Below are positions 1 to 13,980 of a stretch of DNA of 64,000 nucleotides, in pieces; position 1 is the first letter of the stretch, and every line of letters starts with the position of its first letter. This stretch comes from Conexibacter sp. SYSU D00693. GTDB lineage: Bacteria; Actinomycetota; Thermoleophilia; Solirubrobacterales; Solirubrobacteraceae. The stretch is from NCBI RefSeq assembly GCF_017084525.1, contig NZ_CP070950.1, positions 1,364,001 through 1,428,000 on the forward strand, written 5' to 3'. The position numbers were made by a program, and so were the translations under genes. The notes beneath the pieces are model-generated. The model saw only the letters and a list, made by a program, of their open reading frames with translations, did not search any database and was not told the DNA's origin.

Positions 1-1257
1 GAGCAGCTCCCCGTCCGCGTCGAGCCGCAGCTCGCAGCCCTCGATGACCTGGCCGACCGAGCCGATCTTCGCCGCGGCGGGCGCGGTGACGGTCACGCAG
101 CAGGAGCACTCCGACATGCCGTAGATCTCCGAGATCGGCAGACCCAGCGCGAGGAGGAACTCCTGGACCGCACGGGCCAGCGGCGCCGCGCCGATGATGA
201 ACCACTCGACCTGGTCGAGGCCCAGCTTGGCCCGCAGCTTCGAGAGGACCGCCTCGTCCATGGCCGCGACCTTCTGGGCGAGCTCCTCGGGAACCGGCTC
301 CCCGGCCTGCTCCAGGCGGACCTTCTGCTTGGCCAGCTCGATCGCGCCGAGCACGGCCTCGCGCCGCGCCTCGTCGGGCTCGGCCTGCAGCCCCGCCTCC
401 AGCGCCGCCTTGAGCTTCTCGGCGACGCGCGGCACGGCGCCCCACACCGTGGGCCGCACCTCGGGCAGGACCTGCGCGATGAGCTTCGGGTCGGGCACCG
501 TGGTGATCTGGAGCCCGAAGCACATCTGGTTGTAGTGCGAGGACCAGCGGTCGGCGATGTGCGCCGACGGCAGGTAGGAGGTGATGCGGGCGCCCGGGCG
601 CATCGGCAGCACCTGCGAGACGCCGCGGCACTGGGCGAGCATGTTCGCGTGGGTCAGCTCGACGCCCTTTGGCGGACCGGTGGTGCCCGAGGTGTAGATC
701 AGGGTCAGCACGTCGTCGGGCTGGACGGCCCGCCACGCGGTCTCGAAGTCGAAGGCCGGGTCGCCGGCGGCCTCGAGCTCCTCCAGCGTGATGGTCCCGT
801 CACGGCGCCCGTCGAGGCAGACGATCGTGCTCGGGCGGCCGCGGTCGCCGCGCGCCTCGATCAGCTTGTCGACGAAGACCTCCTGCGTGATGACGAGGTC
901 GGCCTGGGAGTTGTCCAGCAGGTAGGCGACCTGCTCGGGCGACGAGGTCGCGTAGATCGAGAACGGCGTGGCGCCGAGGTGCACGGCGGCGGTGTCGCAG
1001 AGGTGGAACTCCGGCCGGTTGACCAGGAGCAGCGCGACGGTGTCCCCGCGCGCGACGCCCTTGGCGGCCATGCCCGCGGCGATCGAGCGCACGCGGTCGG
1101 CGTAGGCGCCGAAGGTGATCTCGGTCTGGCCGTCGTGGCTGCGAACGGCGACCTCCTCGGCGTAGGCGGCGGCGGTCGCCTGGAAGGCCTCGCACATCGT
1201 GGAGGCGTGGACCTCCGGGGACGCGGAGCCCAGCGACTCGGGGGCGGTGGTCGTCAT
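1..1257 (-). CDS. Long-chain acyl-CoA synthetase (AMP-forming), 3' end cut by window edge
   Basis: The first 419 residues of an ANL-superfamily acyl-CoA ligase of the long-chain (FadD15/FAA1-like) type are visible. The family forms an acyl-adenylate and then the CoA thioester. The ATP-binding motif LIYTSGTTGPPKG lies at about residues 187-199 and the adenylate motif EIYGMSECS near residue 390. Roughly 180 C-terminal residues, including the hinge and catalytic lysine, lie outside the window. The ATG is preceded by a strong ribosome-binding site (AGAGGAGAGGGA). It is the last visible member of the minus-strand catabolic run and has its own 78-bp upstream gap holding a palindrome and a diverged copy of the cluster operator. 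It probably activates the acid that the neighbouring thiolases and hydratases degrade; the substrate cannot be read from sequence. Confidence 0.93.
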   Translation of the reverse strand, partial: MTTTAPESLGSASPEVHASTMCEAFQATAAAYAEEVAVRSHDGQTEITFGAYADRVRSIAAGMAAKGVARGDTVALLLVNRPEFHLCDTAAVHLGATPFSIYATSSPEQVAYLLDNSQADLVITQEVFVDKLIEARGDRGRPSTIVCLDGRRDGTITLEELEAAGDPAFDFETAWRAVQPDDVLTLIYTSGTTGPPKGVELTHANMLAQCRGVSQVLPMRPGARITSYLPSAHIADRWSSHYNQMCFGLQITTVPDPKLIAQVLPEVRPTVWGAVPRVAEKLKAALEAGLQAEPDEARREAVLGAIELAKQKVRLEQAGEPVPEELAQKVAAMDEAVLSKLRAKLGLDQVEWFIIGAAPLARAVQEFLLALGLPISEIYGMSECSCCVTVTAPAAAKIGSVGQVIEGCELRLDADGELL

Positions 1258-1335: not shown

Positions 1336-2529
1336 TCAGGCAGGGTCGCGCTCCGCCCCGACGATCGAGATGAACGACACGCACGCCCCGGGCGAGCCGC
1401 CGAGGTTGTGGGTCAGGCCGAGCTTGGGGTCCTCGAGCTGGCGGTCGCCCGCCTCGCCGCGGAACTGCAGCCAGCACTCGAAGAGCATCCGCAGGCCGCT
1501 GGCGCCGATCGGATGGCCGAAGGACTTCAGCCCCCCGTCCGGGTTGACCGGCAGGTCGCCGTCGAGGTCGAACCGGCCCTCCATGACGTCCTTCCAGCCC
1601 TCGCCCCGGTCCGAGAAGCCGAGGTCCTCCATCAGGACGAGCTCGGTCGGCGTGAAGCAGTCGTGGACCTCGGCCATCGAGATCTCCGCCCGCGGGTCGG
1701 TGACGCCCGCCTGCGCGTAGGCGTCCTCGGCCGAGGCGACGACCTCGCCGAACGACGTGAAGTCGTACTCGGGGTCGACGGGACCCTCGGCCGGTCCCGC
1801 GGCGAAGGCCAGCGCCTTCACGAACATCGGCCGGTCGGTGTAGCGGTGGGCGTCCTCGGCGCGGACGATGATCGCCGCGGCCGCGCCGTCGGCGACGCCG
1901 CTGCAGTCGAAGATCCCGAGCTGCCCCGCCACGATCGGCGAGCTGGCGATCTTCTCCATCGGCACCTCGCTGCGGAACTGCGCCCGCTCGTTGAGCGCGC
2001 CGTTCTTGTGGTTCTTCCACGCGATGCGCGTCATGACGTCCTTGAGCTGGCCGGGCTCGACGCCGTACTTCTTGGCGTACGCGGGTGCGAGGAGGCTGAA
2101 GACCGCCGGCGCCGACGGCTCGGAGACCGTGCCGTCGTTGGAGGCGGGCGGGACGACGAGGCCCGAGTAGCCGGAGTCCTTGAGCTTCTCCCCGCCGACG
2201 GCCATGACGACGTCGTAGGCGCCCGATGCGACGGCGTAGCAGGCGTTGCGGAACGCCTCGGAGCCCGTCGCGCAGTAGTTCTCGACGCGGGTGACCGGCT
2301 TGTTGTCGATCTTCAGCGGCCGGCTGAGGGTGAGCCCGGAGGTCCCGGAGCCCATGGTGCCCAGCCAGTAGGCGTCGACGTCGTCGCGCTGCAGGCCGTC
2401 GACCGAGCCGACCGCCTCGTTGACGGCGTCGATGAGGAGGTCGTCGATCGACCGCCCCCAGTGCTCGCCGAAGGTCGTGCATCCCATGCCCACGATCGCG
2501 ACGCGGTCGCGGATCCCATGGCTCGCCAT
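1336..2529 (-). CDS. SCP2/lipid-transfer-type thiolase (copy B)
   Basis: A 397-residue thiolase-superfamily protein of the acetyl-CoA acetyltransferase/SCP2-thiolase type. The nucleophile is Cys86 in the context ENYCATGSEA; HDCFTPTEL and GHPIGASG supply the further conserved active-site segments. The stop of the upstream DUF35-fusion gene is one base from this start, so the two are translationally coupled. The gene is clearly paralogous to the thiolase at 4698-5894: the N-termini and most blocks are the same and Cys86 is at the same index. In the family such enzymes cleave or form beta-ketoacyl-CoA, or act as retro-aldolases when paired with a DUF35 protein. Which of these applies here is open. 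Confidence 0.9.
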   Translation of the reverse strand: MASHGIRDRVAIVGMGCTTFGEHWGRSIDDLLIDAVNEAVGSVDGLQRDDVDAYWLGTMGSGTSGLTLSRPLKIDNKPVTRVENYCATGSEAFRNACYAVASGAYDVVMAVGGEKLKDSGYSGLVVPPASNDGTVSEPSAPAVFSLLAPAYAKKYGVEPGQLKDVMTRIAWKNHKNGALNERAQFRSEVPMEKIASSPIVAGQLGIFDCSGVADGAAAAIIVRAEDAHRYTDRPMFVKALAFAAGPAEGPVDPEYDFTSFGEVVASAEDAYAQAGVTDPRAEISMAEVHDCFTPTELVLMEDLGFSDRGEGWKDVMEGRFDLDGDLPVNPDGGLKSFGHPIGASGLRMLFECWLQFRGEAGDRQLEDPKLGLTHNLGGSPGACVSFISIVGAERDPA

Positions 2530-2530
2530 C

Positions 2531-3922
2531 TCAGCTGCGCTCCTTCACGGGTCGGCCCTTCCAGAAGTAGTTGTGCACGCCGGCCGCGCTGTACATCCGG
2601 CGGAAGGTCATCTCGACGCGCGTCCCCACGTCGACGTCCTCCGGCGTGCAGTCGGTCAGCTCGCACGTGAAGCGGCCGCCGCCCTCGAAGTCGATGGCGG
2701 CGGTGATCGTCGGCGGGCTGAGCGAGAACGCCAGCCGGTCGACGGTGTAGGTCGTGACGGTCCCCTGGCGGTCGGCCATCGAGACGTCGTCCATCTCGTC
2801 GACCGCGCCGCAGGTGCCGCACACCCGCGTCGGCGGGACGTGCACGCGCTCGCACGAACGACAGCGGGTGCCGACGAAGCCGAACTTCCAGCTCGCCGCG
2901 CGCTGGGCCGGAGGGCCCTCGGGCCGGACGGGGTCCGGCCGCCGCGGCGGCTCGCGCACGAGCGTCCCGCGCCAGGTCAGGTACGTCGCGTAGTCGACCT
3001 CCTCGGCGAGCCCGAGCTGTGCCCGGGGTCCGGCGGTCGCCGGGCGGCCGGCGATCGCGTCGGTCACCCGCAGCACCAGGGCGTCGGCACCGTCGGCGGC
3101 GCTGACGACGAGGACGTGCTCGCCGGGCTGCGCGCGGTCCAGCGCGTCGGCCAGCCCGACGCCGGCCTGCGCGGCACCGAGGTTCCCGGTGGCCGCCTCG
3201 AGCGACGGGTCGACCGCGGCGCCGAACGCCCTGGCCGCGGTCGCGGCGGCGCGGGTGTGCGGCGAGGCGATGACGACGTGGTCGGGCCGTTCGACGCCGG
3301 CGGCGGCCAGCGCGCGGCCGGCGGCGTCCTGCACGAGCGGCAGGTAGACGCCCAGGCCGAAGCGCTCCTCCCAGACGCTCGAGTGCTGCTCGCCGGGCAC
3401 GCGCCAGCGGTCGAGGAACTCCGCGGTGGCGCTCGCCTGGCCGACGAGCTCGGCGACCACGCCGTCGCCCTCGCCGAAGAGGAACGCGGCGGCGCCGTCG
3501 CCGCCGCCCGCCTCGTCGGCCGACCCCGGGCGGCCGATGCGCACGTCGCTGAGCACCGCCAGCCCGCCCTCGGCGGCGGCCGCGCGCAGGGCGCCGACCG
3601 CGCTGCGGATGGACCCGACGTGGTCGGTGGCGAAGACGTCGGGAGCGAGCGTCAGGGCGGCGTGGATGGCCGTCGCGTTGGTCTTGTCGGCGTAGGCGGG
3701 CGCGGTCGTGGCGAAGTGGACGGCGGTCGGCGTGAAGCTGCCGTTCCACCGCGCGGCCCGTGCCGCCTCCACGCCCATGGAGGTCGTGTCCTCGTCGAAG
3801 CCGGCGACCGCCCGCGTCCCCCTGCCGCCGGGCGGGTCGGACGGGTTCAGGGTCCTGCGGATCGCGGCGCGGTCGAGGCGGTGGCGGGGGACGTAGGTCC
3901 CGTAGCTGACGATGCCGGGCAT
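2531..3922 (-). CDS. HMG-CoA-synthase-like domain fused to zinc-ribbon/OB-fold DUF35 (copy B)
   Basis: A 463-residue fusion. Residues 1 to about 320 follow the HMG-CoA synthase/KAS III thiolase fold. Residues about 345-463 are a DUF35 acyl-CoA-binding module with a zinc ribbon (Cys354, 357, 368, 371) and an OB fold ending near GVHNYFW. The first cysteine of the protein is Cys354, so the thiolase-fold half has no cysteine at all, and the usual catalytic cysteine region reads HVGSIRSAVGAL. It is therefore unlikely to be a working HMG-CoA synthase and more likely a structural or CoA-binding partner for the adjacent thiolase. The start is the ATG of MPGIVSYG, which matches the paralogue's length. 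The enoyl-CoA hydratase ends 8 bp upstream. Confidence 0.85.
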   Translation of the reverse strand: MPGIVSYGTYVPRHRLDRAAIRRTLNPSDPPGGRGTRAVAGFDEDTTSMGVEAARAARWNGSFTPTAVHFATTAPAYADKTNATAIHAALTLAPDVFATDHVGSIRSAVGALRAAAAEGGLAVLSDVRIGRPGSADEAGGGDGAAAFLFGEGDGVVAELVGQASATAEFLDRWRVPGEQHSSVWEERFGLGVYLPLVQDAAGRALAAAGVERPDHVVIASPHTRAAATAARAFGAAVDPSLEAATGNLGAAQAGVGLADALDRAQPGEHVLVVSAADGADALVLRVTDAIAGRPATAGPRAQLGLAEEVDYATYLTWRGTLVREPPRRPDPVRPEGPPAQRAASWKFGFVGTRCRSCERVHVPPTRVCGTCGAVDEMDDVSMADRQGTVTTYTVDRLAFSLSPPTITAAIDFEGGGRFTCELTDCTPEDVDVGTRVEMTFRRMYSAAGVHNYFWKGRPVKERS

Positions 3923-3930
3923 GTGCTCCT

Positions 3931-4701
3931 TCAGCGCCCCTGCCAGACGGGGGCGCGCTTCTCGGTGAAGGCCCGCGCGCCCTCGCGCGCGTCCTCGGAC
4001 GCCATGACCGGATCGGCGATCGCCGCCTGCCGGTCGAAGAACTCGCTGTCGCTCCAGGACCACTGCTCCTGGAGCACCTGCTTGCTCGCGGTGAGCGCCA
4101 GCGGGCCGTTGGCCGCGATCGTCTGCGCCAGCGCGAGGGCCTCGGTGAGCGCCTCCCCCGGCTCGGCGAGCCGGTTCACGGCGCCCAGCGCGTGGGCGCG
4201 TTCGGCCGTGATGAGCTCGCCCGTGAGCGCCAGCTCCATCGCGATGGGCGCGGGCAGCAGCCGCGGCAGCCGGCGCAGCGCCCCGCCCGCGGCGACCAGG
4301 CCGCGCTTGGCCTCCGGGATGCCGAGCTTCGCCCCCTTCGCGGCGACGACGAGGTCGCAGGCCAGCGCGACCTCCAGGCCGCCGGCGACGGCGAAGCCCT
4401 CGATCGCGGCGACCAGGGGCGTGCGCGGCGGGCGGCGGACGATGCCGGCGAAGCCGCGGTCGCCGGCCCACGGGCGCGTGCCGGTCTGCGCGAAGGCCTT
4501 GAGGTCCATGCCGCTGCAGAAGCCCTTGCCCGCGCCGGTGAGCACGCCGACGCGCAGGCCCGGGTCGCCGTCGAGCTCGTCGAGCGCGGCCGCGATCGCC
4601 TCGGCCATGGGGACGTCGACGGCGTTGCGCTGCTCGGGGCGGTTGAGCGTGAGGACGAGCACCGCGTCGCGGCGCTCGACCAGCAGTGGCGGGGCGCTCA
4701 C
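3931..4701 (-). CDS. Enoyl-CoA hydratase/isomerase family protein
   Basis: A 256-residue crotonase-fold protein. The oxyanion-hole segments are GKGFCSGMDLKAF and AVAGGLEVALACD; the conserved IPEAKRGL segment carries a glutamate. The GTG start overlaps the stop of the upstream thiolase by four bases (GTGA), which fixes the start and indicates one operon. In the family it hydrates trans-2-enoyl-CoA or does related isomerisations or lyase reactions. Here it sits between two DUF35-fusion/thiolase pairs and presumably supplies the hydration step of the same CoA-ester pathway. Confidence 0.9.
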   Translation of the reverse strand: MSAPPLLVERRDAVLVLTLNRPEQRNAVDVPMAEAIAAALDELDGDPGLRVGVLTGAGKGFCSGMDLKAFAQTGTRPWAGDRGFAGIVRRPPRTPLVAAIEGFAVAGGLEVALACDLVVAAKGAKLGIPEAKRGLVAAGGALRRLPRLLPAPIAMELALTGELITAERAHALGAVNRLAEPGEALTEALALAQTIAANGPLALTASKQVLQEQWSWSDSEFFDRQAAIADPVMASEDAREGARAFTEKRAPVWQGR

Positions 4702-5894
4702 CCCTGCTCGGCCCCCACGATCGAGATGAACGACACGCACGTGCCGGGGCGCCCGCCGAGGTTGTGGGTCAGCCCGAGGCGCGGATCGGCGAGCTGGCGG
4801 TCGCCCGCCTCGCCGCGGAACTGCAGCCAGCACTCGAAGAGCATCCGCAGCCCGCTGGCGCCCACCGGATGGCCGAAGGACTTCAGGCCGCCGTCGGGGT
4901 TGACCGGCAGCGCGCCGTCGAGGTCGAAGACGCCCTCGAGCTCGTCGCGCCACGCCTGGCCGCGCTCGCTGAAGCCGAGGTCCTCCATGAGCACGAGCTC
5001 GGTCGGCGTGAAGCAGTCGTGCACCTCGGCCATCGAGATCTCGGCGCGCGGGTCCGTGATGCCGGCCTGCGCGTAGGCGTCCTTGGCGCAGGCCACGACC
5101 TCGTGGAAGGTCGTGTAGTCGTAGGAGGGGTCGATCGGCCCGCTGGCGGGGCCCGCGATGACCGACAGCGCCTTCACGAACATCGGCCGGTCGGTGTACC
5201 GGTGGGCGTCCTCGGCGCGGACGACGAGCGCGGCCGCCGCGCCGTCGGAGACGCCGGAGCAGTCCATGACGCCCAGGCGGCCCGCGACCCGGCCGGCCCC
5301 CGCGTCGATCTTCTCCTTCGGGACCTCCTTGCGGAACTGCGCGCGCGGGTTCTTGGCCCCGTTGACGTGGTTCTTCCACGCGACGTGGGTCATCGCGTCG
5401 CGCATCGCCTGCGGGTCGACGCCGTACTTCTTGCAGTAGGCGGGGTCCAGCAGCGAGAAGGCGGCGGGCGCGGTGAGCGTCTCCTCCGGCGCGGTGCCGT
5501 CGCCCGGGACGTTGGAGCGCACGAGCCCCGAGTAGCCGGTGTCCTTGAGCTTCTCGACGCCGACCGCCATGACGCGGTCGTAGGCGCCGGAGGCCACGGC
5601 GTAGCAGGCGTTGCGAAACGCCTCGGAGCCCGTCGCGCACATGTTCTCGACGCGGGTGACGGGCTTGTAGTCGATGCCCAGCGGCTTGGAGAGGACGGTG
5701 CCCGACTGGCCCGAGTTCATCGTCCCCAGCCAGAAGGCGTCGACGTCCTCCTTGGGCAGGCCGGGCGCCGAGGCGAAGCACTGCTCGGCGGCGTCGACGA
5801 GGAGGTCGTCGGCCGACTTGCCCCAGTGCTCGCCGAAGGCCGTGCAGCCCATGCCGACGATGGCGACCTTGTCGCGGATCCCGTTAGACGGCAC
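4698..5894 (-). CDS. SCP2/lipid-transfer-type thiolase (copy A)
   Basis: A 398-residue thiolase-fold protein and close paralogue of the gene at 1336-2529. Nucleophile Cys86 lies in ENMCATGSEA, with HDCFTPTEL and GHPVGASG further on. It overlaps the upstream DUF35-fusion gene by 11 bp and the downstream hydratase by 4 bp, so all three are co-translated. The duplication of the fusion-thiolase pair, with a hydratase between the pairs, suggests two rounds of chain or ring cleavage, or two substrates, handled by dedicated complexes. This is inference from gene order. Confidence 0.9.
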   Translation of the reverse strand: MPSNGIRDKVAIVGMGCTAFGEHWGKSADDLLVDAAEQCFASAPGLPKEDVDAFWLGTMNSGQSGTVLSKPLGIDYKPVTRVENMCATGSEAFRNACYAVASGAYDRVMAVGVEKLKDTGYSGLVRSNVPGDGTAPEETLTAPAAFSLLDPAYCKKYGVDPQAMRDAMTHVAWKNHVNGAKNPRAQFRKEVPKEKIDAGAGRVAGRLGVMDCSGVSDGAAAALVVRAEDAHRYTDRPMFVKALSVIAGPASGPIDPSYDYTTFHEVVACAKDAYAQAGITDPRAEISMAEVHDCFTPTELVLMEDLGFSERGQAWRDELEGVFDLDGALPVNPDGGLKSFGHPVGASGLRMLFECWLQFRGEAGDRQLADPRLGLTHNLGGRPGTCVSFISIVGAEQG

Positions 5895-7257
5895 GGCGCA
5901 CCCTGACCTTCCAGAAGTAGTTGTGGACGCCGCCGGCCGTGTAGAGCCGGCGGAAGGTGAGCTCGAGCGGCGTGCCGATGTCGACCTGGTCGGGGTCGGC
6001 GTCGGCGACCTCGAGCGTGTAGCGCCCGCCGCCGTCGAAGTCGACGACCGCGTCGATCATCGGCGGCGAGGGCGAGAAGGCGAGGCGGTCGACGGTGTAC
6101 GTCGCGACGGTCCCACCCTTGCCGGCCAGCGGCGCGCGCGCCATGCGGTCGACGGCCTGGCAGTTGACGCACACCCGCCGCGGGGGGACGTGGACGTGGT
6201 CGCAGGCCTCGCAGCGCGAGCCGACGAACGCGAACTTCCAGGCCTCGGAGCGCGCGGACGCCGGCCCCGCGGGACGGCTGGGCTCGGGCCGGCGCGGCGG
6301 CTCGCGGTGCAGCATCCCGCGCCAGGTCAGGTAGGTCGCGTACGGGACGTCGTGGCCGCCCTCGAGCTGCTCGGCGACGGGCACCGTCGCCCGGCGGCCG
6401 GGCAGCGCGTCGGTCGTGCGCAGCACGGTCGCGTCGCAGCCGTCGGCGGCGATCACCAGCAGGATCGTCTCCCCCGGCCCCGCGCGGTCGAGCACCGCGG
6501 CGAGCCGGACCCCCGGGTCGGCCGCGCCGGCGTAGCCGATCGCCGGCGGCTGCTCGGGCACGCGCCCTGCGAGGCTCTTGGCGGCGGTCGCGGCGGCGCG
6601 GCTGTGGGGCGAGGAGACGACGACGTGGTCGACCTCGTCGAGGCCCGCGGCGTCGAGCGCGCGGCGGGCGGCGTCCCGCACGAGCGGCAGGTAGGCCTCG
6701 AGGCCGAAGCGCTCCTCCCACTGCCCGCTGGCCTGCTCGCCGGGCGCGCGCCAGCGGTCGAGGAACTCCGCGGTGGCCGACGCCTCGGCGACGACCTCGG
6801 CGATCGGCGGGCCCTCGCCGAAGAGGAACGCCGCGGCGGCGTCGCCGCTGTCGCGCTCGTCGGCCGACCCGGGCCGGCCCGTGCGCAGGTCGCTCAGCAC
6901 GGCCAGGCCTCCCGAGCCCGCGGCGGCGCGCAGCGCACCGGTGGCCCCGCGTGCCGAGCCGGCGAGGTCGACGGCGAAGCCCTCGTGGCCCAGGTCGAGC
7001 GCGGCGTGGATCGCCGTCGCGTTGGTCTTGTCGAGGTACGCCGGTGCCGTGGTGGCGAAGAACAGGCTCTGCGGCCGGGTGCCGTCGGTCAGGGCGGCAC
7101 GCGCCGCCTCGACGCCCATCGTCGTCGAGTCCTCGTCGTAGGAGGCGACGGCCCGGGCGCCCTTGCCCCCGCCCGTGCCGAGGGCGGAGGCGAGCTCCGC
7201 GCGCTGCAGCCGGTGCCGCGGGACGTACGCGGCGTAGGACAGGAGGCCGTGACCCAT
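5884..7257 (-). CDS. HMG-CoA-synthase-like domain fused to zinc-ribbon/OB-fold DUF35 (copy A)
   Basis: A 457-residue paralogue of the gene at 2531-3922, first gene of the minus-strand operon. It has the same domain order: a thiolase-fold N-terminal part, then a zinc ribbon with four cysteines (RCEACDHVHVPPRRVCVNC), then an OB fold ending with GVHNYFW. The position of the synthase cysteine reads DLAGSARGATGAL, so the nucleophile is missing here too; the only cysteine before the ribbon is in AADGCDAT, not a catalytic position. The start is MGHGLLSY, which lies 10 bp after a TACGAT -10 box in the shared operator block, so the leader would be only a few bases. It diverges from the hydratase at 7304. 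Confidence 0.85.
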   Translation of the reverse strand: MGHGLLSYAAYVPRHRLQRAELASALGTGGGKGARAVASYDEDSTTMGVEAARAALTDGTRPQSLFFATTAPAYLDKTNATAIHAALDLGHEGFAVDLAGSARGATGALRAAAGSGGLAVLSDLRTGRPGSADERDSGDAAAAFLFGEGPPIAEVVAEASATAEFLDRWRAPGEQASGQWEERFGLEAYLPLVRDAARRALDAAGLDEVDHVVVSSPHSRAAATAAKSLAGRVPEQPPAIGYAGAADPGVRLAAVLDRAGPGETILLVIAADGCDATVLRTTDALPGRRATVPVAEQLEGGHDVPYATYLTWRGMLHREPPRRPEPSRPAGPASARSEAWKFAFVGSRCEACDHVHVPPRRVCVNCQAVDRMARAPLAGKGGTVATYTVDRLAFSPSPPMIDAVVDFDGGGRYTLEVADADPDQVDIGTPLELTFRRLYTAGGVHNYFWKVRVRRAV

Positions 7258-7303: not shown

Positions 7304-8101
7304 GTGGCCGAGCGCAGCGACGACGTCCTGGTGCAGCGCGACGGTGCCGTCGCGCACCTGCAGCTCAACCGCCCGGAGGCGCTCAACGCGTGGACGCCCG
7401 ACATGGGCCGCGCCCTGCTGGCGGCGCTGCGCGACGCCGGCACGGACCCCGGCGTGCGCGCCGTGCTGGTCACCGGCGCGGGCCGTGGCTTCTGCGCGGG
7501 CGCCGACGTCAAGGTGCCGCGCGAGCTGCTGCCCGACGGCGCGCCCGACCTCCACACCCGCCTCGAGGAGATCTACAACCCGGTCGTGCTCGAGGTCCGG
7601 CGGATGCCCAAGCCCGTCGTCGCCGCCGTCCACGGCCCGGCCGCCGGGCTCGGCGTCTCCCTCGCCGCCGCCTGCGACCTCGTCGTCGCCGCCGACTCGG
7701 CGACCTTCCTCCTGGCCTTCGTCCACATCGCCGTCATGCCGGACGGCGGCGTCCTCGGCCACCTCGCGGCGAAGGTCGGCGCCGGCCGTGCCGCGGAGCT
7801 CGCGATGCTCGGCGAGCGGCTTCCCGCGGCCCGCGCGCACGCGTGGGGCCTCGTCCAGCGCCTCGTCGCCGACGACGAGCTCCACGCCGAGGGGTTGGCC
7901 CTCGCGCAGCGCCTGGCCGCCATGCCGACGACGGCCCTGGCCTCGATCAAGGAGGTCCTCGACCGCTCGCGCACGCTGGCCCTCGAGGACGCGGTGGCGC
8001 TCGAGGCGCAGGTCCAGCAGCGCCACGCGACCACCGCGGACTACGCCGAGGGCGTCGCGGCGTTCAAGGAGAAGCGGCGGCCGCGGTTCGTGGGGCGGTA
8101 G
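7304..8101 (+). CDS. Enoyl-CoA hydratase/isomerase family protein
   Basis: A 265-residue crotonase-fold protein transcribed away from the minus-strand operon. Oxyanion-hole segments are GRGFCAGADVKV and GPAAGLGVSLAAACD. At the usual catalytic-glutamate region it reads FVHIAVMPDGG, so the second glutamate typical of hydratases is not obvious, and an isomerase-like or other crotonase activity is possible. The GTG start is supported by a TAGCAT -10-like hexamer at 7292-7297, which would give a nearly leaderless transcript. Its last 38 bp overlap the convergent 3-hydroxyacyl-CoA dehydrogenase gene. Confidence 0.87.
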   Translation: MAERSDDVLVQRDGAVAHLQLNRPEALNAWTPDMGRALLAALRDAGTDPGVRAVLVTGAGRGFCAGADVKVPRELLPDGAPDLHTRLEEIYNPVVLEVRRMPKPVVAAVHGPAAGLGVSLAAACDLVVAADSATFLLAFVHIAVMPDGGVLGHLAAKVGAGRAAELAMLGERLPAARAHAWGLVQRLVADDELHAEGLALAQRLAAMPTTALASIKEVLDRSRTLALEDAVALEAQVQQRHATTADYAEGVAAFKEKRRPRFVGR

Positions 8102-9620
8102 GAGCGACCGGCGCCTCGACGTCCCGCAGGCCCATCCCGATCGCCGCGCGCCGGCGCAGGAGCGGCGCGACGCGGTAGCGCTCCTCGTGGAGCTCGGCGA
8201 ACAGGCCGTCGAGGATGCGCACGACCTGGGCGGTGCCGGTGGCCTCGGACCAGGCGACGGGCCCGCGGGGGTGGTTGACGCCGAGCTCGAGGCCGGCGTC
8301 GACGTCGTCGGGCGTGCCGTCGCCGGCGCCGACGAGGAAGGCCGCCTCGTTGACGAGCTGGGCGACGATGCGGCCGAGGACGAGGCCGGGGCCGTCGCCG
8401 ACCCACTCGGGCACGCGGCCCAGGCTGCGGACGAGCGCGTCGAGGCGCTCGGCCGCCACCGGGTCGGTGCGCGGGGTGCGGGTGAGCTCGACGAGGCGCG
8501 CGCCGTCGAACGGCGCGAGGAGGTGCAGGCCCGCGGCCTCGGGCGCGGCGAGGTGCAGCGAGGCGCCGTCGACGAGGACCGCGTCGCGACCGACCCACAG
8601 CCACGGGTCGTCGTGGTCGCCGACGTCCCAGCCCGCCGCCCGGGCGGCGCTGCGCAGGGCGTCGGGTGCCGGGCCGTCGCCGTCGACGCGCAGCGGGCGG
8701 CCGTCGCCGCCGCCGGCCTGCGGCGGCTCCGGGTCGGCCGGCGGGCCGGCGCCGTCGCCCTCGTAGGCGTACCAGCCGGCGCCCGTCTTGCGACCCAGGC
8801 GCCCCGCGGCGACCATCCGCGCGGCCAGCGGGCTCGGGCGGTAGCGCGGCTCGCCGTAGGTCTGGCGGTGGAAGCCCTCGGCGACCGCGTGGTTGGTCTC
8901 GATGCCGATGAGGTCCATGAGCTCGAACGGGCCCATCCGGAAGCCGCCGGCCATGCGCATGACGCGGTCGACCTGCTCGACGGTCGCCTGGCCCTCCTGG
9001 ACCACGCGCAGCGCCTCGAGGAAGAACGGGCGGTTGACGCGGTTGACGAGGAAGCCCGGGATGTCGGCGGCGTCGATGACGCGCTTGCCCATCGCCTCCC
9101 CCACCGCGCGGGCGACGGCCACGACGTCGGGCGCGGTCGCGACGCCCGGGACGACCTCGGCCAGGCGCATGACCGGCGCCGGGTTGAAGAAGTGCAGGCC
9201 GACGACGCGCTCGGGCCGCGGCACGCCGGCCGCGATCTCGGTCACCCCCAGCGACGACGTGTTCGTCGCCAGGACGCAGTCCGCGCCGCAGAGCTCGGCG
9301 AGCCGGCCGAAGAGCTCGAGCTTGAGCTCCAGGCGCTCGGGGACGGCCTCGATCACCATGCCGCAGCCGGCGAGCTCCTCGAGCCGGCCGGCGGGCTCGA
9401 CGCGGGCGCGCAGCGCCGCCGCCTCCTCGGCGCTCAGGCGCCCCTTGGCCACGAGCTTGCCCAGCCCGCGCTCGATCGTCGCCAGGCCGCGCTGGAGCCC
9501 CTCGGGGACGGCGTCGAAGAGCCGCACGCGCGCGCCCGCCTGCGCGGCGAGCTGCGCGATGCCCGCGCCCATCGTCCCCGCACCCACGACGCCGATGACG
9601 TCGGGGACCCGCGCGCTCAC
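8064..9620 (-). CDS. 3-hydroxyacyl-CoA dehydrogenase
   Basis: 518 residues. The N-terminus carries the NAD-binding signature GVVGAGTMGAG, then the family features TNTSSLGVTEIA and GLHFFNPAPVMRL. A second C-terminal dehydrogenase domain follows (GVNHPRGPVAW), so this is a two-domain form longer than the usual protein of about 285 residues. The GTG start overlaps the upstream small gene by four bases (GTGA). It oxidises (S)-3-hydroxyacyl-CoA to 3-ketoacyl-CoA in beta-oxidation-like pathways. It ends the Rieske-oxygenase operon, so the same pathway contains a ring or side-chain hydroxylation followed by a CoA-dependent oxidation. Confidence 0.92.
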   Translation of the reverse strand: MSARVPDVIGVVGAGTMGAGIAQLAAQAGARVRLFDAVPEGLQRGLATIERGLGKLVAKGRLSAEEAAALRARVEPAGRLEELAGCGMVIEAVPERLELKLELFGRLAELCGADCVLATNTSSLGVTEIAAGVPRPERVVGLHFFNPAPVMRLAEVVPGVATAPDVVAVARAVGEAMGKRVIDAADIPGFLVNRVNRPFFLEALRVVQEGQATVEQVDRVMRMAGGFRMGPFELMDLIGIETNHAVAEGFHRQTYGEPRYRPSPLAARMVAAGRLGRKTGAGWYAYEGDGAGPPADPEPPQAGGGDGRPLRVDGDGPAPDALRSAARAAGWDVGDHDDPWLWVGRDAVLVDGASLHLAAPEAAGLHLLAPFDGARLVELTRTPRTDPVAAERLDALVRSLGRVPEWVGDGPGLVLGRIVAQLVNEAAFLVGAGDGTPDDVDAGLELGVNHPRGPVAWSEATGTAQVVRILDGLFAELHEERYRVAPLLRRRAAIGMGLRDVEAPVAPTAPRTAAAASP

Positions 9621-9871
9621 CGGTCGAGCTCCTCGCGGGCCAGCACGCCGTCGTCGCGCCAGCGGTGCAGCGACGGGTCCAGGAAGCGGTGCAGGGCGCC
9701 GTCGGGCAGCCACGCCAGCGTCTCGAGCTCGAGGGCATCGAGGAACCCCACGTGGCCGGTGCGCAGGTCCTCGACGCGCAGCCGCGGCCCGTTGCCCTCG
9801 TGGTCGATGCTCAGGGAGACCGCCGCGAACTCGCTGACGACCTCGCCGACCGGCTCGGCCTCGCCGCGCAT
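9617..9871 (-). CDS. Small protein of Rieske-oxygenase operons, function unknown
   Basis: 84 residues, no signal peptide or membrane segment. It contains FLDALELETLAWLPDGALHRFL. Actinobacterial databases hold similar small proteins, often mislabelled dihydrodiol dehydrogenase, next to ring-hydroxylating oxygenase genes. The gene starts 2 bp after the oxygenase beta-subunit stop and overlaps the dehydrogenase start by 4 bp. Tight coupling suggests a role with the oxygenase, but nothing catalytic can be seen. Confidence 0.7.
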   Translation of the reverse strand: MRGEAEPVGEVVSEFAAVSLSIDHEGNGPRLRVEDLRTGHVGFLDALELETLAWLPDGALHRFLDPSLHRWRDDGVLAREELDR

Positions 9872-9873
9872 GC

Positions 9874-10374
9874 TCAGATGAGGAACGACAGCGTGTACAG
9901 GGCCCGGTCGTTGTCGACGAGCATGACCTTCTTGAAGGCCATCCGCAGCTCGCCGTCGACCTCGCGCAGCCCGTACTCGTACCGGCCCGCCCAGTGCGTC
10001 GTCCCGCGCTCGCGCGACTCGACCACCAGGAAGTTGGCCCCCACGCGGACCTGCCCGTCGACCTCGGGGTCGGGGCCGAGCAGCTCGACGTTGGTCACCA
10101 GCCGGCGCACGCGCGAGGGCGGCGTGGCGGCGTGGCGCTTGCCGGTGTGGAACTGCTTGACGCGCGTGGCGATCCGCGCGCGGTTGTCGAAGATCACCGA
10201 CATCTGCCGCGTCGGGTCGATGTCGTCGCCGTTGGCGGGCACCCAGTAGATCGCGTCGTCGGTCCACAGGGCCTCCCACGCGTCGTAGTCGTGGTCGTCG
10301 GCGTAGCGCGCCTCCCGGAAGAGGAACTGCTCGACGTCGCGCAGGTCGATCCCGACCGCGGGCGTCGCCGCCAC
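9874..10374 (-). CDS. Aromatic-ring-hydroxylating dioxygenase beta subunit
   Basis: 166 residues with the SnoaL-like/NTF2 fold expected of the structural beta subunit. It starts VEQFLFREARYADDHDYDAW (a typical N-terminus) and includes DDAIYWVPANGDD and RRLVTNVELL. The GTG start shares one base with the alpha-subunit stop (TAGTG). It forms the hetero-oligomer with the alpha subunit at 10374-11636. No ferredoxin or reductase gene is adjacent, so electron transfer must come from elsewhere in the genome. Confidence 0.9.
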   Translation of the reverse strand: MAATPAVGIDLRDVEQFLFREARYADDHDYDAWEALWTDDAIYWVPANGDDIDPTRQMSVIFDNRARIATRVKQFHTGKRHAATPPSRVRRLVTNVELLGPDPEVDGQVRVGANFLVVESRERGTTHWAGRYEYGLREVDGELRMAFKKVMLVDNDRALYTLSFLI

Positions 10375-11636
10375 TAGACCGCCTCCATCAGCGACCGGTA
10401 GTGGCGCCAGATGCCGCGCTGGGGCACCTCGTCCGTCGCGTCCCCGATGAGGAAGCCGCGCTCGTCGTGGCGCTCGCGGTGCACCCCGCGCTTGAGGACG
10501 AGCCACTCGGGGTCCTTGGCCAGCACGCCGCGCTGGTTGCGCTCGTACATCTCCGAGTCGTCGGCGAGCAGGAAGCCCGCCGGCCCGACGGACCCGATCG
10601 TCTGCTGCAGCATCCGCCGGTTCATGTCCGGGCAGCCCCCGTACTGGACGGCGGTCACGTGCTGCACGGTCTGGTCGACGGCCAGCGGCTGCAGGACGAA
10701 GAGCTGGATCTCGGCGATGAAGAGGTTCGGGAAGACCATGACGTGCGGGGAGCCGTCGATGAGCACCTCGCGCGCCCTGTCCTTGCCGTAGGCGTCCTCC
10801 ATCTGGCGCACGTAGTCCGGGACCTTCTCGGGCTTCGTGCCGAACCACCCCAGGGGCTGGCCGATGCGCCGGAACTCGGGCCGCAGGTCGTTCTCGGTGT
10901 GGCCGTTGCCCAGGTCGCGCGCCACCGCGGTCGACTTCTCGCCGTAGAGGTCGCCGATGCCGCTGTCGGCCACGCTGAAGATCGACGAGTGGACGAACTG
11001 CGGGTGGTAGCCGTCGGTCTCGTTCTCCAGCAGCATCTTCCAGTTGGCCTTGACCTTGTGCTGGAGCCAGCCGGCGGTCAGCTCGACCTCGCCCGTCGGC
11101 GAGAGCGCGACGAGCCGGTCGAAGGCCTCGCGAGCGGCGCCGAGGTGCTCGAGCAGCGTCGGCCCCTCCTCGGCGAAGGAGCCGAAGACGAAGCCCTGGT
11201 ACTGGGCGACGCGCGGGACGCGGCCGAGGCCGAGGTCCTTCTTGGCCTCGCGCCCGCCGTAGCCGCTGTTGAAGGGGTACCCGAGCAGCTTGCCGGTGTT
11301 GGAGAACGTCCAGCCGTGGTAGGGGCAGCGGAACGCGCTCGAGTTGCCGCGGGGCGCGTCGCAGACGAGGTTGGCCCGGTGGGTGCAGCGGTTGAGCAGC
11401 AGGTGGATCTCGCCCTGCTTGTCGCGGGACATGATCACCGGCTGCGGGCCGAGGGACTTCAGGACGTAGTCGTTGGGCTCGGGCACCTCGGACACGTGCC
11501 CGACGTAGACCCACTCGCGGTACCAGATGCGCTCGAGCTCGGCCTGGTAGATCGCGGGGTCGGTGTAGAGCGACCCGTGCACGCGGTCGTGCTCGATCAG
11601 GTCCGCCCAGGGCGTGAGGGGCTCGACGGCGGTCAT
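10374..11636 (-). CDS. Rieske 2Fe-2S aromatic-ring-hydroxylating oxygenase alpha subunit
   Basis: 420 residues. The Rieske motif is Cys84-x-His86 and Cys104-x2-His107 (CTHRANLVC, then CPYHGW). The mononuclear iron site follows in the segment ENETDGYHPQFVHSSI with the Asp/His/His pattern. In this family the oxygenase inserts O2 into an aromatic ring or does O-demethylation or monohydroxylation; the substrate is not predictable from the sequence. The ATG is preceded by TAGGAG and, 12 bp upstream, by the cluster operator with a TACGAT -10 box. It heads the operon alpha-beta-84-residue protein-3-hydroxyacyl-CoA dehydrogenase. Confidence 0.93.
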   Translation of the reverse strand: MTAVEPLTPWADLIEHDRVHGSLYTDPAIYQAELERIWYREWVYVGHVSEVPEPNDYVLKSLGPQPVIMSRDKQGEIHLLLNRCTHRANLVCDAPRGNSSAFRCPYHGWTFSNTGKLLGYPFNSGYGGREAKKDLGLGRVPRVAQYQGFVFGSFAEEGPTLLEHLGAAREAFDRLVALSPTGEVELTAGWLQHKVKANWKMLLENETDGYHPQFVHSSIFSVADSGIGDLYGEKSTAVARDLGNGHTENDLRPEFRRIGQPLGWFGTKPEKVPDYVRQMEDAYGKDRAREVLIDGSPHVMVFPNLFIAEIQLFVLQPLAVDQTVQHVTAVQYGGCPDMNRRMLQQTIGSVGPAGFLLADDSEMYERNQRGVLAKDPEWLVLKRGVHRERHDERGFLIGDATDEVPQRGIWRHYRSLMEAV

Positions 11637-11643
11637 GGTGCTC

Positions 11644-12801
11644 CTACGATCGTACATGCTGTCCAGACACCTCGCGTGGAGTTGTCGTCCGATCGGCGGC
11701 GGGCACGAGCGCGAACAGCGCCTGCGCGACGGCGTCGGCCGCCGCGGTCGTCCCGCCGGCCAGCCGGCGGGCATGCTCGGCGCGCCGGTAGGTCAGCGAG
11801 GCGTCGTGCTCCCACGTGGCACCGACGCCGCCGTGGACGAAGATGCTCTCCAGCGCGCAGAAGCCCAGGGCGTCGGCGGCGGTCACCCGCGCGGCGTTGG
11901 CGGTGAGGGCGAAGCGCTCGCGCTCCTCGTCCCACTGGCGCGCGGCGGCGATGACGACCGACCGCGCACCCTCGGTGCGCCGCAGCATCTCCACCAGCTT
12001 GTGCTTGATCGCCTGGTAGGAGCCGATCGGCCGGCCGAAGGCGACGCGGTCCACCGCGTAGTCGCGCGCGAGCTCCAGCGCCGCCGACGCGGCGCCGACC
12101 GACTCGGCCGCCAGCAGCAGCCGCTGCAGGTCGGCCCCGTCGCGCGCCCGCGCGGGCGCCAGGTCCAGCACGCGCACCTCGAGGTCGTCGAGCGCGACGT
12201 CGCCGACCGCCCGCGTGGCGTCGTAGCCGGCCACCGCGTCCAGCGCGACGCCGCCGGCCTCCGCCGCCACGACCCCGGCCGCGGGCAGCCCCTCCTCGTC
12301 CTCGCCGACGAGGACCAGCACGTCGGCGCCCGGCGCGTCGAGCACCCCCGGCACGTGCCCGGTGGCCCGGGCCACCGCGCCGTCGCGGCGCAGCGTGAGA
12401 CGCCCGCCGCGCCCGCCGACCGCCGGGTCGACCAGCGCGGCGCGGCGCGTGCCGTCGGCCAGCTGGCCCAGGAGCCCGCCGCCGGCGTCGGGGGCCGCGC
12501 CGAGCAGCGCCGTCGCCGGCAGGTGGCCGAGCAGGCGGGCGTCGGCCAGGCGCCGCCCGCACTCCTCCAGGACGAGGGTCGCCTCGGCGGCCGACAGGGC
12601 GGCGCCGCCGGCGTCCTCGGCGACCAGCAGCCCGGCCCAGCCCGCCTCGCAGGCCAGCGGCCAGAGGTCCGGGGCCGGCCCTCCGTCGAGCGCCGCCCGC
12701 GCCGCCTCGAGCGTCGCGACGCGCCCCAGCGCGTCGCGCGCGGCCTCGACCAGGAAGCCCTGCTCGTCGCTGAGCGCCCGGAACATCGCCGCCGCGCTCA
12801 C
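11644..12801 (-). CDS. Acyl-CoA dehydrogenase, second (degenerate-type) subunit
   Basis: 385 residues of acyl-CoA dehydrogenase fold, with the C-terminal substrate/FAD region RVAFGRPIGSYQAIKHKL and FVHGGVGATWEHD. The N-terminal half is diverged. It overlaps the upstream acyl-CoA dehydrogenase by a GTGA junction. Paired unequal ACAD genes of this kind usually form alpha2beta2 enzymes in actinobacterial steroid/terpenoid side-chain degradation (the FadE26/27 or ChsE type); this assignment is by analogy. Its last codons lie inside the operator/promoter block of the downstream Rieske operon. Confidence 0.85.
   Translation of the reverse strand: MSAAAMFRALSDEQGFLVEAARDALGRVATLEAARAALDGGPAPDLWPLACEAGWAGLLVAEDAGGAALSAAEATLVLEECGRRLADARLLGHLPATALLGAAPDAGGGLLGQLADGTRRAALVDPAVGGRGGRLTLRRDGAVARATGHVPGVLDAPGADVLVLVGEDEEGLPAAGVVAAEAGGVALDAVAGYDATRAVGDVALDDLEVRVLDLAPARARDGADLQRLLLAAESVGAASAALELARDYAVDRVAFGRPIGSYQAIKHKLVEMLRRTEGARSVVIAAARQWDEERERFALTANAARVTAADALGFCALESIFVHGGVGATWEHDASLTYRRAEHARRLAGGTTAAADAVAQALFALVPAADRTTTPREVSGQHVRS
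11648..11670 (-). promoter_or_regulatory. Cluster operator/promoter block, site B
   Basis: Minus-strand reading TGTCTGGACAGCATGTACGA followed by TC, identical over that stretch to site A. It is 12 bp upstream of the Rieske alpha-subunit ATG and overlaps the 3' coding end of the acyl-CoA dehydrogenase gene. TACGAT is the likely -10 hexamer and the TGTC-TG-GACA near-palindrome the likely operator. Confidence 0.65.
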
Positions 12802-13949
12802 GCCGCCACCCGCGGCTCGGGCGGCAGGCCGAGGACCCGCTCGCCGATGACGTTGCGCAGGATCTCCTCGGTCCCGCCGGCCGACCGCACGCCGGGGAGC
12901 ATCGAGACCTGATGGCCCCACTCGGGCGCCACGAGCGCCTGCGCGCCGCGGACGTCGACGGCCAGCCGGCAGGCGTCGAGGGACGCCAGCACGCTGGTGA
13001 TCTTGATCAGCCCGGCCTCCGGGCCGGGGACCTGGCCCTGGGAGACCTGCTCGACGACCCGCTCGCTCGTGTGGCGCAGGGCCAGCAGCTGGGAGGCCAC
13101 CTCGCCCAGGCGGACGCGCACGGCCGGGTCCTCGCGGTCGTCGGCGTGCGCGCCGACCGCCGCCACGAGCTGGTCCAGCGGCGTGGCGTGCAGCCCGGAG
13201 CCGACCGCGACGCGCTCGAAGCCGAGCATCGTCAGGGCGACCTTCCAGCCCTCGCCCGGCGCGCCGATGACGGCCTCGGCGCAGAGCCGGACGTCGTCGA
13301 GGAAGACCTCGTTGAACTCCGCGTCGCCGGTGATCTGGCGCAGCGGACGGATCGTCACGCCCGGTGCGTCCATCGGGACGACGAACATCGTCAGGCCCTT
13401 GTGCTTGGCGACGTCCGGGTCGGTGCGCGCGAGCAGGATCCCGAAGGCGGCGTGCTGGGCGAAGGACGTCCACACCTTCTGGCCGTCGACGGCCCAGGTG
13501 CCGTCGTCCTGGCGGCGCGCGCGGGTCTGCACCGCGGCGAGGTCCGAGCCGGCGCCCGGCTCGGAGAGCAGCTGGCACCAGGGCTCGTCACCGCGCAGCA
13601 GCGGCTCGAGGTGGCGGTCCTGCTGCTCGGCGCTGCCGTGCACCATGAGCGTCGGGCCGACCATGCCGATGCCGATGAAGTCGAAGGCGGTCGCGACGCC
13701 GTGGGCCTCGAGCTCCTGCTCGACGGCCACGGCCTCGGCCGGGCTGCCGCCCGCGCCGCCGAAGCGCTCGGGCCAGGTCACCCCGGCGTAGCCGGCCTCG
13801 CTGAGCGTCCGCTGCCACGCGAGGCGGCCGCGGACGTCGTCGTCGTCGAGCGGCTCGAGCACCGTGCGGCGCGGGGCCGTCTCGGCGTGGGCGGCCAGCC
13901 ACTCCCTCAGGCGCGCCCGGTAGGCGCGCAGCGCGTCGTCGTCTGCCAT
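12798..13949 (-). CDS. Acyl-CoA dehydrogenase
   Basis: 383 residues with the family signatures CQLLSEPGAGSDLAAVQTRA (FAD/substrate segment) and WAVDGQKVWTSFAQHA, and a C-terminal SAGGTEEILRNVIGERVLGL. It alpha,beta-desaturates an acyl-CoA and passes electrons to ETF. The start MADDDALRAY is chosen over two upstream in-frame ATGs because those overlap the TACGAT -10 box of site C; from 13949 the leader would be about 5 nt. It is the first gene of an operon with the second ACAD subunit. Confidence 0.9.
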   Translation of the reverse strand: MADDDALRAYRARLREWLAAHAETAPRRTVLEPLDDDDVRGRLAWQRTLSEAGYAGVTWPERFGGAGGSPAEAVAVEQELEAHGVATAFDFIGIGMVGPTLMVHGSAEQQDRHLEPLLRGDEPWCQLLSEPGAGSDLAAVQTRARRQDDGTWAVDGQKVWTSFAQHAAFGILLARTDPDVAKHKGLTMFVVPMDAPGVTIRPLRQITGDAEFNEVFLDDVRLCAEAVIGAPGEGWKVALTMLGFERVAVGSGLHATPLDQLVAAVGAHADDREDPAVRVRLGEVASQLLALRHTSERVVEQVSQGQVPGPEAGLIKITSVLASLDACRLAVDVRGAQALVAPEWGHQVSMLPGVRSAGGTEEILRNVIGERVLGLPPEPRVAA

Positions 13950-13958
13950 GTCGAGCGG

Positions 13959-13980
13959 CATCGTACGTGCTGTCCACACA
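13959..13980 (-). promoter_or_regulatory. Cluster operator/promoter block, site C
   Basis: Minus-strand reading TGTGTGGACAGCACGTACGA followed by TG: the shared block with a few changes, with the TACGAT -10 hexamer at 13960-13965. A further half-site GCTGGACACCATG lies immediately upstream (13979-13992). It precedes the acyl-CoA dehydrogenase operon. Confidence 0.6.

What the first reader, a model, noticed from the sequence alone, without database searches (positions are those of the whole stretch)
2531..7257. Duplicated thiolase + [HMG-CoA-synthase-like-DUF35 fusion] pairs without the synthase cysteine
In archaea, thiolase, HMG-CoA synthase and DUF35 form a channelling complex, and in actinobacterial steroid degradation SCP2-thiolase-like aldolases pair with DUF35 proteins. 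Here the synthase-like and DUF35 parts are one chain, sit next to a thiolase, and occur twice. In both copies the catalytic cysteine region (HVGSIRS, DLAGSARG) has no cysteine; copy B has none before residue 354. The fold may have become a scaffold that docks DUF35 onto the thiolase.
Basis: partly seen in the sequence, partly recalled or inferred. Interest (0 to 1): 0.62.

Follow-up and report, generated by a model that had tools for sequence, protein, structure and literature searches.

The report
Thiolase pairs with fused dead synthase
Two neighbouring gene pairs each encode an intact thiolase plus a partner protein that fuses a synthase fold lacking its catalytic residues to a zinc-binding DUF35 domain, a widespread one-chain version of known three-protein enzyme complexes, here sitting among genes that probably break down ring-shaped acids.

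Summary
Both fusions (2531-3922, 5884-7257, minus strand) join an HMG-CoA-synthase-like domain to a Zn-ribbon/OB DUF35 domain, each directly before a thiolase (1336-2529, 4698-5894). None of 136 distinct fusions keeps the synthase Cys, Glu or His positions. The thiolase motifs are intact in 80 of 80 aligned thiolases. Of 296 phylum genomes, 45 carry the fusion and all 45 carry this thiolase. The pair is most likely an obligate thiolase complex: catalytic thiolase plus a fused equivalent of PhlA+PhlB, or of archaeal HMGCS+DUF35. A Cys-less synthase-like partner is already known in PhlACB, so the scaffold idea has precedent; the one-chain form and catabolic setting are the less familiar part. 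The copies are old paralogues, not a local duplication: B lies in a clade with all 21 sampled fusions linked to one Rieske dioxygenase, A outside it. That DUF35 needs the synthase fold to dock is unlikely, since DUF35 binds other thiolase-fold enzymes without it. Complex formation, substrate and activity are inferred. New variant of a known kind.

The parts
1336..2529 (-). thiolase A (397 aa), partner of fusion A
   Evidence: NF004810/PRK06157 607 bits against cut-off 403; Cys, HDCF and GHP motifs aligned with 6esq_A
2531..3922 (-). fusion A (463 aa): HMGCS-like domain residues ~1-322, linker ~323-340, Zn ribbon ~349-373 and OB fold ~384-441
   Evidence: model pLDDT 90.4; one base before thiolase A
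3931..4701 (-). enoyl-CoA hydratase between the two pairs; its start overlaps the stop of thiolase B
   Evidence: ECH_1 E 6.1e-48; overlap read from sequence
4698..5894 (-). thiolase B (398 aa), partner of fusion B; start overlaps the end of fusion B by 11 bp
   Evidence: NF004810 610 bits
5884..7257 (-). fusion B (457 aa): HMGCS-like domain plus Zn ribbon ~344-366 and OB fold ~379-436
1..1257 (-). start of an AMP-dependent acyl-CoA ligase (604 aa), continuing outside the window, followed there by two ECH genes and a MaoC hydratase
   Evidence: locus L093
7304..8101 (+). PaaG-like enoyl-CoA isomerase/hydratase, divergent from fusion B
   Evidence: best model PaaG, 247 bits, below cut-off 345
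8064..9620 (-). 3-hydroxyacyl-CoA dehydrogenase (PaaH-like)
   Evidence: PRK08268 511.5 bits against cut-off 508; PaaH 441, below its cut-off (start)
9617..9871 (-). p84, conserved small protein of unknown function found with the dioxygenase
   Evidence: no Pfam match at E <= 1e-5; present in all 19 of 80 loci that carry this dioxygenase
9874..10374 (-). ring-hydroxylating dioxygenase beta subunit
   Evidence: PF00866 E 4.2e-28 (boundaries)
10374..11657 (-). ring-hydroxylating dioxygenase alpha subunit (Rieske), 41% identical to the alpha subunit of plasmid pIBU218 that I take to be IpfA
11644..13961 (-). two adjacent acyl-CoA dehydrogenase genes (11644-12801, 12798-13961)

Best explanation
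Each pair encodes one thiolase complex made of two chains. The thiolase is the only catalytic subunit: its Cys attacks a 3-oxoacyl-CoA and CoA resolves the acyl-enzyme. The partner chain is the fused counterpart of PhlA+PhlB, or of archaeal HMGCS+DUF35: the DUF35 Zn-ribbon/OB part bridges to the thiolase, and the dead synthase fold packs alongside and completes the cavity and CoA site. Fusing the two fixes their stoichiometry and orientation. In this genome the complexes probably carry out thiolytic steps of a beta-oxidation-like breakdown of ring-containing acids activated to CoA thioesters; pair B belongs to the orthologous group linked with a Rieske dioxygenase. Shown by computation: domain anatomy, loss of synthase residues, intact thiolase motifs, gene pairing, gene context. 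Inferred: physical complex, pocket role, direction of the reaction, substrate.
For: Domains and fold. Loss of Glu/Cys/His positions in 136 of 136 distinct fusions. Thiolase Cys85, HDCF and His336 equivalents in 80 of 80 (the window's two plus 78 of the 83 neighbours, those of 350 residues or more). Pairing: 83 of 86 loci have a thiolase downstream on the same strand, 79 within 100 bp; of the other three, two end 117 and 192 bases after the fusion and one (L051) shows none in 2077 bases. In the wider distinct set 126 of 134 non-window fusions have it within 300 bp downstream. Whole genomes: 45 of 296 have a fused match (44 span the profile, one of them, G096, in two pieces; G306 is cut short), and all 45 have an NF004810 thiolase over its cut-off; 48 genomes have the thiolase at E <= 1e-100, and the other three (G018, G193, G303) have divergent fused ORFs beside it. 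Tree-distance correlation of 124 fusions and partners r = 0.917 against a maximum of 0.119 in 200 permutations. Catabolic context. PhlA precedent: passages of PMC2954200 and PMC6392133.
Against: No complex was modelled or observed: the tools allowed single chains only. The tree correlation is inflated by shared descent. The synthase-like half keeps 35 residues invariant over 58 aligned members, 16 of them not shared with the archaeal HMGCS, which is more than a bare scaffold needs. The Zn ribbon keeps all four cysteines in 101 of 136 distinct members and none of them in the other 35, so Zn is dispensable in part of the family. One locus (L051) shows no thiolase in the 2077 bases held. The substrate is a guess from neighbours, and neighbours other than the thiolase vary between loci.
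Confidence: 0.7

Rival explanations
1. The synthase-like half is not inert: it has swapped the Cys site for another function, for example binding or gating the acyl-CoA, or a Cys-independent reaction, centred on the conserved D..GS.RS motif that replaces the Cys loop.
For: 35 invariant residues in the synthase half of 58 aligned members, 16 not shared with archaeal HMGCS (R37, H87, R106, R128, D142, E168, R172, W184, D277 and others); position 106 is R or K in 130 of 136.
Against: It is the fastest-changing part of the pair; 19 of the 35 invariants are shared with archaeal HMGCS and may be structural; PhlA, one of its nearest solved relatives, contributes no residue to the acyl transfer (PMC6392133, passages).
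Confidence: 0.2
2. The pair is an acyltransferase of the PhlACB/MucABC kind that makes a C-acylated product rather than a degradative thiolase.
For: PhlA and MucA are among the nearest solved relatives; equivalent domain content.
Against: Neighbours are acyl-CoA ligase, acyl-CoA dehydrogenases, hydratases, hydroxyacyl-CoA dehydrogenase and ring-hydroxylating dioxygenase; no polyketide synthase was seen among the window and plasmid neighbours listed there, but none was searched for by a dedicated model; the thiolases score far higher to PRK06157 than to other models.
Confidence: 0.07
3. The thiolase subunit is a retro-aldolase, like Ltp2, Sal or the ibuprofen-pathway IpfD, releasing a side chain after ring dihydroxylation.
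For: The dioxygenase alpha subunit is 41% identical to that of plasmid pIBU218, where the next genes are the beta subunit, a thiolase-like protein and a DUF35 protein.
Against: That thiolase-like protein (taken to be IpfD) lacks the thiolase Cys, has YDAF where the window thiolases have HDCF, and lacks the GHP motif; both window thiolases keep Cys, HDCF and GHP.
Confidence: 0.06
4. The fusion is an HMG-CoA synthase or FabH-like condensing enzyme.
For: Best curated models are archaeal-type HMG-CoA synthases.
Against: Below the cut-offs; Glu, Cys and His positions lost in 136 of 136; TIGR00748 reaches its cut-off in 0 of 296 phylum genomes, although 3 of 14 controls, all archaea, ring.
Confidence: 0.01

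Closest known systems
PhlACB (2,4-diacetylphloroglucinol acyltransferase; 5m3k, 9skh)
   Same: synthase-like subunit without the Cys and Glu, thiolase-like subunit with Cys, and DUF35 subunit; the synthase-like gene precedes the thiolase gene; structural Z 41 to PhlA
   Different: three separate chains; makes a polyketide antibiotic; here the PhlA and PhlB equivalents are one chain in a catabolic-looking cluster
[quoted passage not shown]
   Same: same three domains; fusion A matches chain I (Z 43 to 6esq_J/6et9_I) and chain E, thiolase A matches chain A (E 6.2e-55)
   Different: archaeal synthase has Cys114 and Glu82 and is active (PMC6392133, passages); separate chains; mevalonate pathway
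MucABC acyltransferase (9vbo, 9vbt)
   Same: synthase-like subunit without the Cys (Glu at that column)
   Different: separate chains; about 20% identity
Benzoylsuccinyl-CoA thiolase BbsAB (7pxp)
   Same: thiolase plus DUF35-type subunit, catabolic (partly recalled)
   Different: no synthase-like domain (recalled); window thiolases 135 and 109 bits against BbsB cut-off 750
Ltp2-ChsH2, Sal-Shy and IpfDE
   Same: thiolase fold with DUF35 partner; IpfDE also beside a related Rieske dioxygenase
   Different: aldolase-type residues; no synthase-like domain

Membership tests
Archaeal HMG-CoA synthase (TIGR00748) | score above the curated cut-off | tested here: not met
   108.9 and 89.3 bits against 353.35
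Archaeal HMG-CoA synthase (TIGR00748) | catalytic Cys114, Glu82 (PMC6392133, passages) and His238 (His role recalled) | tested here: not met
   absent in both copies and in 136 of 136 distinct fusions
PhlACB-type multicomponent acyltransferase | synthase-like part without Cys/Glu, plus thiolase with Cys, plus DUF35, encoded together | tested here: met
PhlACB-type multicomponent acyltransferase | three separate subunits | tested here: not met
   synthase-like and DUF35 parts are one ORF without inner stops
PhlACB-type multicomponent acyltransferase | acyl transfer to phenolic substrates; (A2C2)2B4 assembly | not testable with these tools
   needs purified protein and a structure
Thiolase PRK06157 (NF004810) | score above curated cut-off | tested here: met
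   607 and 610 bits against 403
Thiolase (catalytic) | nucleophile Cys, HDC motif and GH motif | tested here: met
   both window copies and 78 neighbours, 80 of 80 aligned
DUF35 (PF12172 + PF01796) | Zn ribbon and OB domain above gathering scores | tested here: met
   29.0 and 31.6 bits (cut-off 23.2); 48.5 and 41.8 bits (cut-off 27.1)
Benzoylsuccinyl-CoA thiolase BbsAB | equivalog scores | tested here: not met
   BbsB 135.2 and 108.8 against 750; BbsA 17.6 against 250 for copy A, not listed for copy B
Ltp2/Sal/IpfD aldolases | Tyr or YDxY/YDxF in place of the thiolase HDC residues | tested here: not met
   window thiolases have HDCF and GHP; the pIBU218 protein has YDAF and no Cys

The most novel reading that the evidence does not exclude
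The gene set is an undescribed CoA-thioester route for ring-containing acids: a Rieske dioxygenase with its constant small partner p84, no catechol ring-cleaving dioxygenase, and two thiolase/pseudosynthase-DUF35 machines that cut the ring-derived chain by thiolysis. The pseudosynthase domain has been re-purposed as part of the substrate pocket through a rebuilt, conserved GS.RS loop where the Cys used to be.
Probability: 0.25. Interest if true: 0.7.

Novelty: new variant of a known kind. Interest (0 to 1): 0.45.

Why it matters
The thiolase/synthase/DUF35 architecture known from archaeal mevalonate synthesis and from phloroglucinol biosynthesis exists as a two-gene version, with two of the parts in one chain, in Actinomycetota, several other phyla and catabolic-looking plasmids. 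On the plasmids it carries generic names such as 'OB-fold domain-containing protein', '3-oxoacyl-ACP synthase III C-terminal domain-containing protein' or 'hypothetical protein'. The fusion gives a natural fixed-stoichiometry system in which to test what a dead synthase fold contributes to a thiolase, which for PhlA is only proposed (passages).

Tried and rejected
Recent local duplication: rejected, since fusA groups with Patulibacter L013 and fusB with Conexibacter L035, L003 (a genome that held the same match coordinates as Conexibacter arvalis L026) and Patulibacter L016. Lineage-specific decay of the synthase: rejected, since the Cys is missing in all 136 distinct fusions, and also in six unfused HMGCS-like/thiolase/DUF35 triads of same-class genomes, PhlA and MucA. 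Order of fusion and Cys loss: undecided; the unfused triads sit on a very long branch inside the fused group, with support as low as 36 nearby. Filing under the ibuprofen ipf system: rejected, because the pIBU218 thiolase-like protein has aldolase-type residues; that its genes are ipfA, D and E I infer from gene order and the plasmid named in PMC9195938 (passages). A long frame that might be a natural larger fusion (L168, 1121 aa): Pfam found nothing in its first ~650 residues at E <= 0.001, so probably only an open frame. p84: fold model pLDDT 74, no PDB match at E <= 0.001. Two first gene-calling scripts picked antisense frames; the first was used only to choose neighbour representatives. 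Absence of catechol cleavage genes rests on PF00775, PF02900 and PF22632 without a match in the genome and TIGR03211 only below its cut-off, a weak signal also seen in 9 of 14 controls; PF22632 itself rang weakly in only 1 of 14 controls, so that test is poor, and a homogentisate-dioxygenase-type match exists. Genome completeness is 97.46%, so absence is not proof.

Rows set aside: L001 and L002 (the window itself) were left out of neighbour counts; partial fusions L007 and L009 were dropped; 30 of 166 sequences were removed as duplicates; L072, L058 and L008 were left out of alignment A1 because of poor starts, and near-duplicates were thinned, 58 rows remaining. The eight fusions without a thiolase within 300 bp are L033 (thiolase about 300 bp away), L043 and L049 (1260 and 2161 bp away), L041 (thiolase broken into two frames), L076 (thiolase cut by the contig end), L045 and L046 (contig ends) and L051 (none in 2077 bp).

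Literature: no paper describing this fusion was found in the listings (open-licence PMC only, capped lists), nor by find in PMC11237513. PMC2954200 says that DUF35 homologues are fused to members of the thiolase superfamily, without naming this one in the passages I saw. Papers seen as passages: PMC2954200, PMC6392133, PMC12329534, PMC9195938, PMC10398937, PMC11237513. Others: search listings only. The archaeal complex paper (10.1073/pnas.1718649115) was not held.
Full report
What is there. On the minus strand, in transcription order: fusion B (7257-5884), thiolase B (5894-4698), an enoyl-CoA hydratase (4701-3931), fusion A (3922-2531), thiolase A (2529-1336), then an acyl-CoA ligase that runs out of the window, followed by two more hydratases and a MaoC-type hydratase. 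From fusion B to thiolase A the genes abut or overlap by a few bases, as in an operon. A second block on the same strand holds two acyl-CoA dehydrogenases, the alpha and beta subunits of a ring-hydroxylating dioxygenase, an 84-residue protein and a 3-hydroxyacyl-CoA dehydrogenase. A PaaG-like gene (7304-8101) points the other way between the blocks.

The fusion. Pfam recognises only the Zn ribbon and OB domain. The rest matches HMG-CoA synthase models below cut-off and aligns with archaeal HMGCS over residues 3-321 and with PhlA over 3-318. The model of fusion A is confident (pLDDT 90.4, pTM 0.92) apart from the linker around residues 321-350 and a few ends and loops. Its best structural neighbours are the archaeal HMGCS, PhlA and MucA.

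Loss of the synthase site. At the Cys114 column copy A has Ile and copy B Ala. In the first set 0 of 88 (window copies included) had Cys there. In 136 distinct fusions none has Cys, none has the Glu82 residue and none has His at the His238 column. That His238 is catalytic is recalled, not taken from a call. Next to the lost Cys, the Lys of HMGCS is R or K in 130 of 136. These sets come from the best 80 of 320 confirmed loci, genome searches and plasmids, so they are a sample of the family.

The thiolase. Both window thiolases exceed the NF004810 cut-off. Cys85, His284, Cys286 and His336 equivalents are kept in 80 of 80 aligned thiolases (the window's two plus 78 of 83 neighbours, those long enough). 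This separates them from the aldolase members of the fold, including the thiolase-like protein of the ibuprofen plasmid pIBU218.

Pairing. Of 86 loci, 83 have the thiolase downstream on the same strand; two of the other three end too soon, and L051 shows none in 2077 bases. In the larger distinct set 126 of 134 do so within 300 bp; of the eight others, five do have a thiolase, further off, broken or cut, two end at the contig end and one is L051. In 296 genomes of the phylum, 54 match the fusion profile; by my reading of the table 45 of these are fused proteins and nine are single-domain, short or divergent matches. All 45 have the thiolase over its cut-off. The thiolase is found at E <= 1e-100 in 48, and the other three have a divergent fused ORF next to it.

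Two old paralogues. FusA and fusB are 63% identical, thiA and thiB 76%. FusA is nearest to Patulibacter L013, fusB to L035 (Conexibacter) and L003, and the thiolases agree. One Patulibacter genome holds a relative of each on different contigs. All 21 dioxygenase-linked fusions in the tree fall in the 30-member clade of fusB (support 1.0), which excludes fusA; that clade also holds fusB and eight members for which no such dioxygenase was seen in the stretch held. The small group around fusA (7 members, support only 0.64) includes Pseudonocardia L014, which has MaoC- and FAS1-dehydratase-like genes upstream.

Setting. Of the 80 loci of the genome scan, 19 carry the same dioxygenase alpha and beta subunits and the 84-residue protein, always all three. 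Plasmids of Rhodococcus qingshengii and Mycobacterium avium carry ligase, hydratases, dioxygenase, small protein, fusion and thiolase in one run (the avium run has another thiolase gene in between), and Variovorax SRS16 has dioxygenase, fusion, thiolase and hydroxyacyl-CoA dehydrogenase, without the small protein in its gene table. Against an obligate link with the dioxygenase, Sulfitobacter and Pseudonocardia plasmid stretches of 17 kb have the dioxygenase and no fusion in any of six frames, and 61 of 80 fusion loci show no such dioxygenase within the flank held, at most 6 kb and often less.

How it probably works. The thiolase is the enzyme. The partner supplies, in one chain, what PhlA and PhlB or the archaeal synthase and DUF35 supply in two. 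[quoted passage not shown] Passages of PMC12329534 say that DUF35 domains hold the archaeal and Phl complexes together, and that DUF35 binds Ltp2 and Sal without a synthase-like domain. So the dead domain is probably not needed to dock DUF35, and completing or shaping the pocket is the better guess. It changes fastest of the three domains, yet 35 positions of that half are invariant in 58 members, 16 of them not shared with the archaeal enzyme. All four Zn cysteines are kept in 101 of 136 and none in the other 35, which a purely Zn-dependent bridge would not predict.

Known or new. The parts, the Cys-less partner and the complex type are known. PMC2954200 already notes DUF35 fused to thiolase-superfamily members and an inactive partner in phlABC (passages). 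I found no description of this fusion in the searches named under Tried and rejected. It is a new variant of a known kind.

Noticed in passing
window 9617-9871 (-): 84-residue protein without Pfam match, present in all 19 genome-scan loci that carry this ring-hydroxylating dioxygenase, on three further plasmids and, in part, beside an ipf-like cluster of Rhodococcus DK180; possibly a dioxygenase accessory. Not listed in the Variovorax and Sulfitobacter clusters.
   Followed up: partly
window 10374-11657 and the whole genome: The dioxygenase alpha subunit is 41% identical to the presumed IpfA of pIBU218, while the genome shows no intradiol (PF00775), LigB or BphC_D1 match and no catechol 2,3-dioxygenase above cut-off.
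   Followed up: partly
loci L154-L159: Six genomes of the same class carry the unfused triad HMGCS-like, thiolase, DUF35 in that order, also without the Cys.
   Followed up: partly
alignment of 136 distinct fusions: About a quarter of the sampled family has lost the Zn site: 101 keep all four cysteines, 35 keep none.
   Followed up: partly
G000:C1:3957626 and 2670310: Two further DUF35 OB domains elsewhere in the genome, one inside a 1108-residue open frame.
   Followed up: no
window 18585-21074 (-): Large protein with a tannase-like DUF6351 domain.
   Followed up: no
L093 7169-8764 and 11533-13140: Two proteins with a PEP-utilising mobile domain further along the strand from the operon, outside the window.
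   Followed up: no
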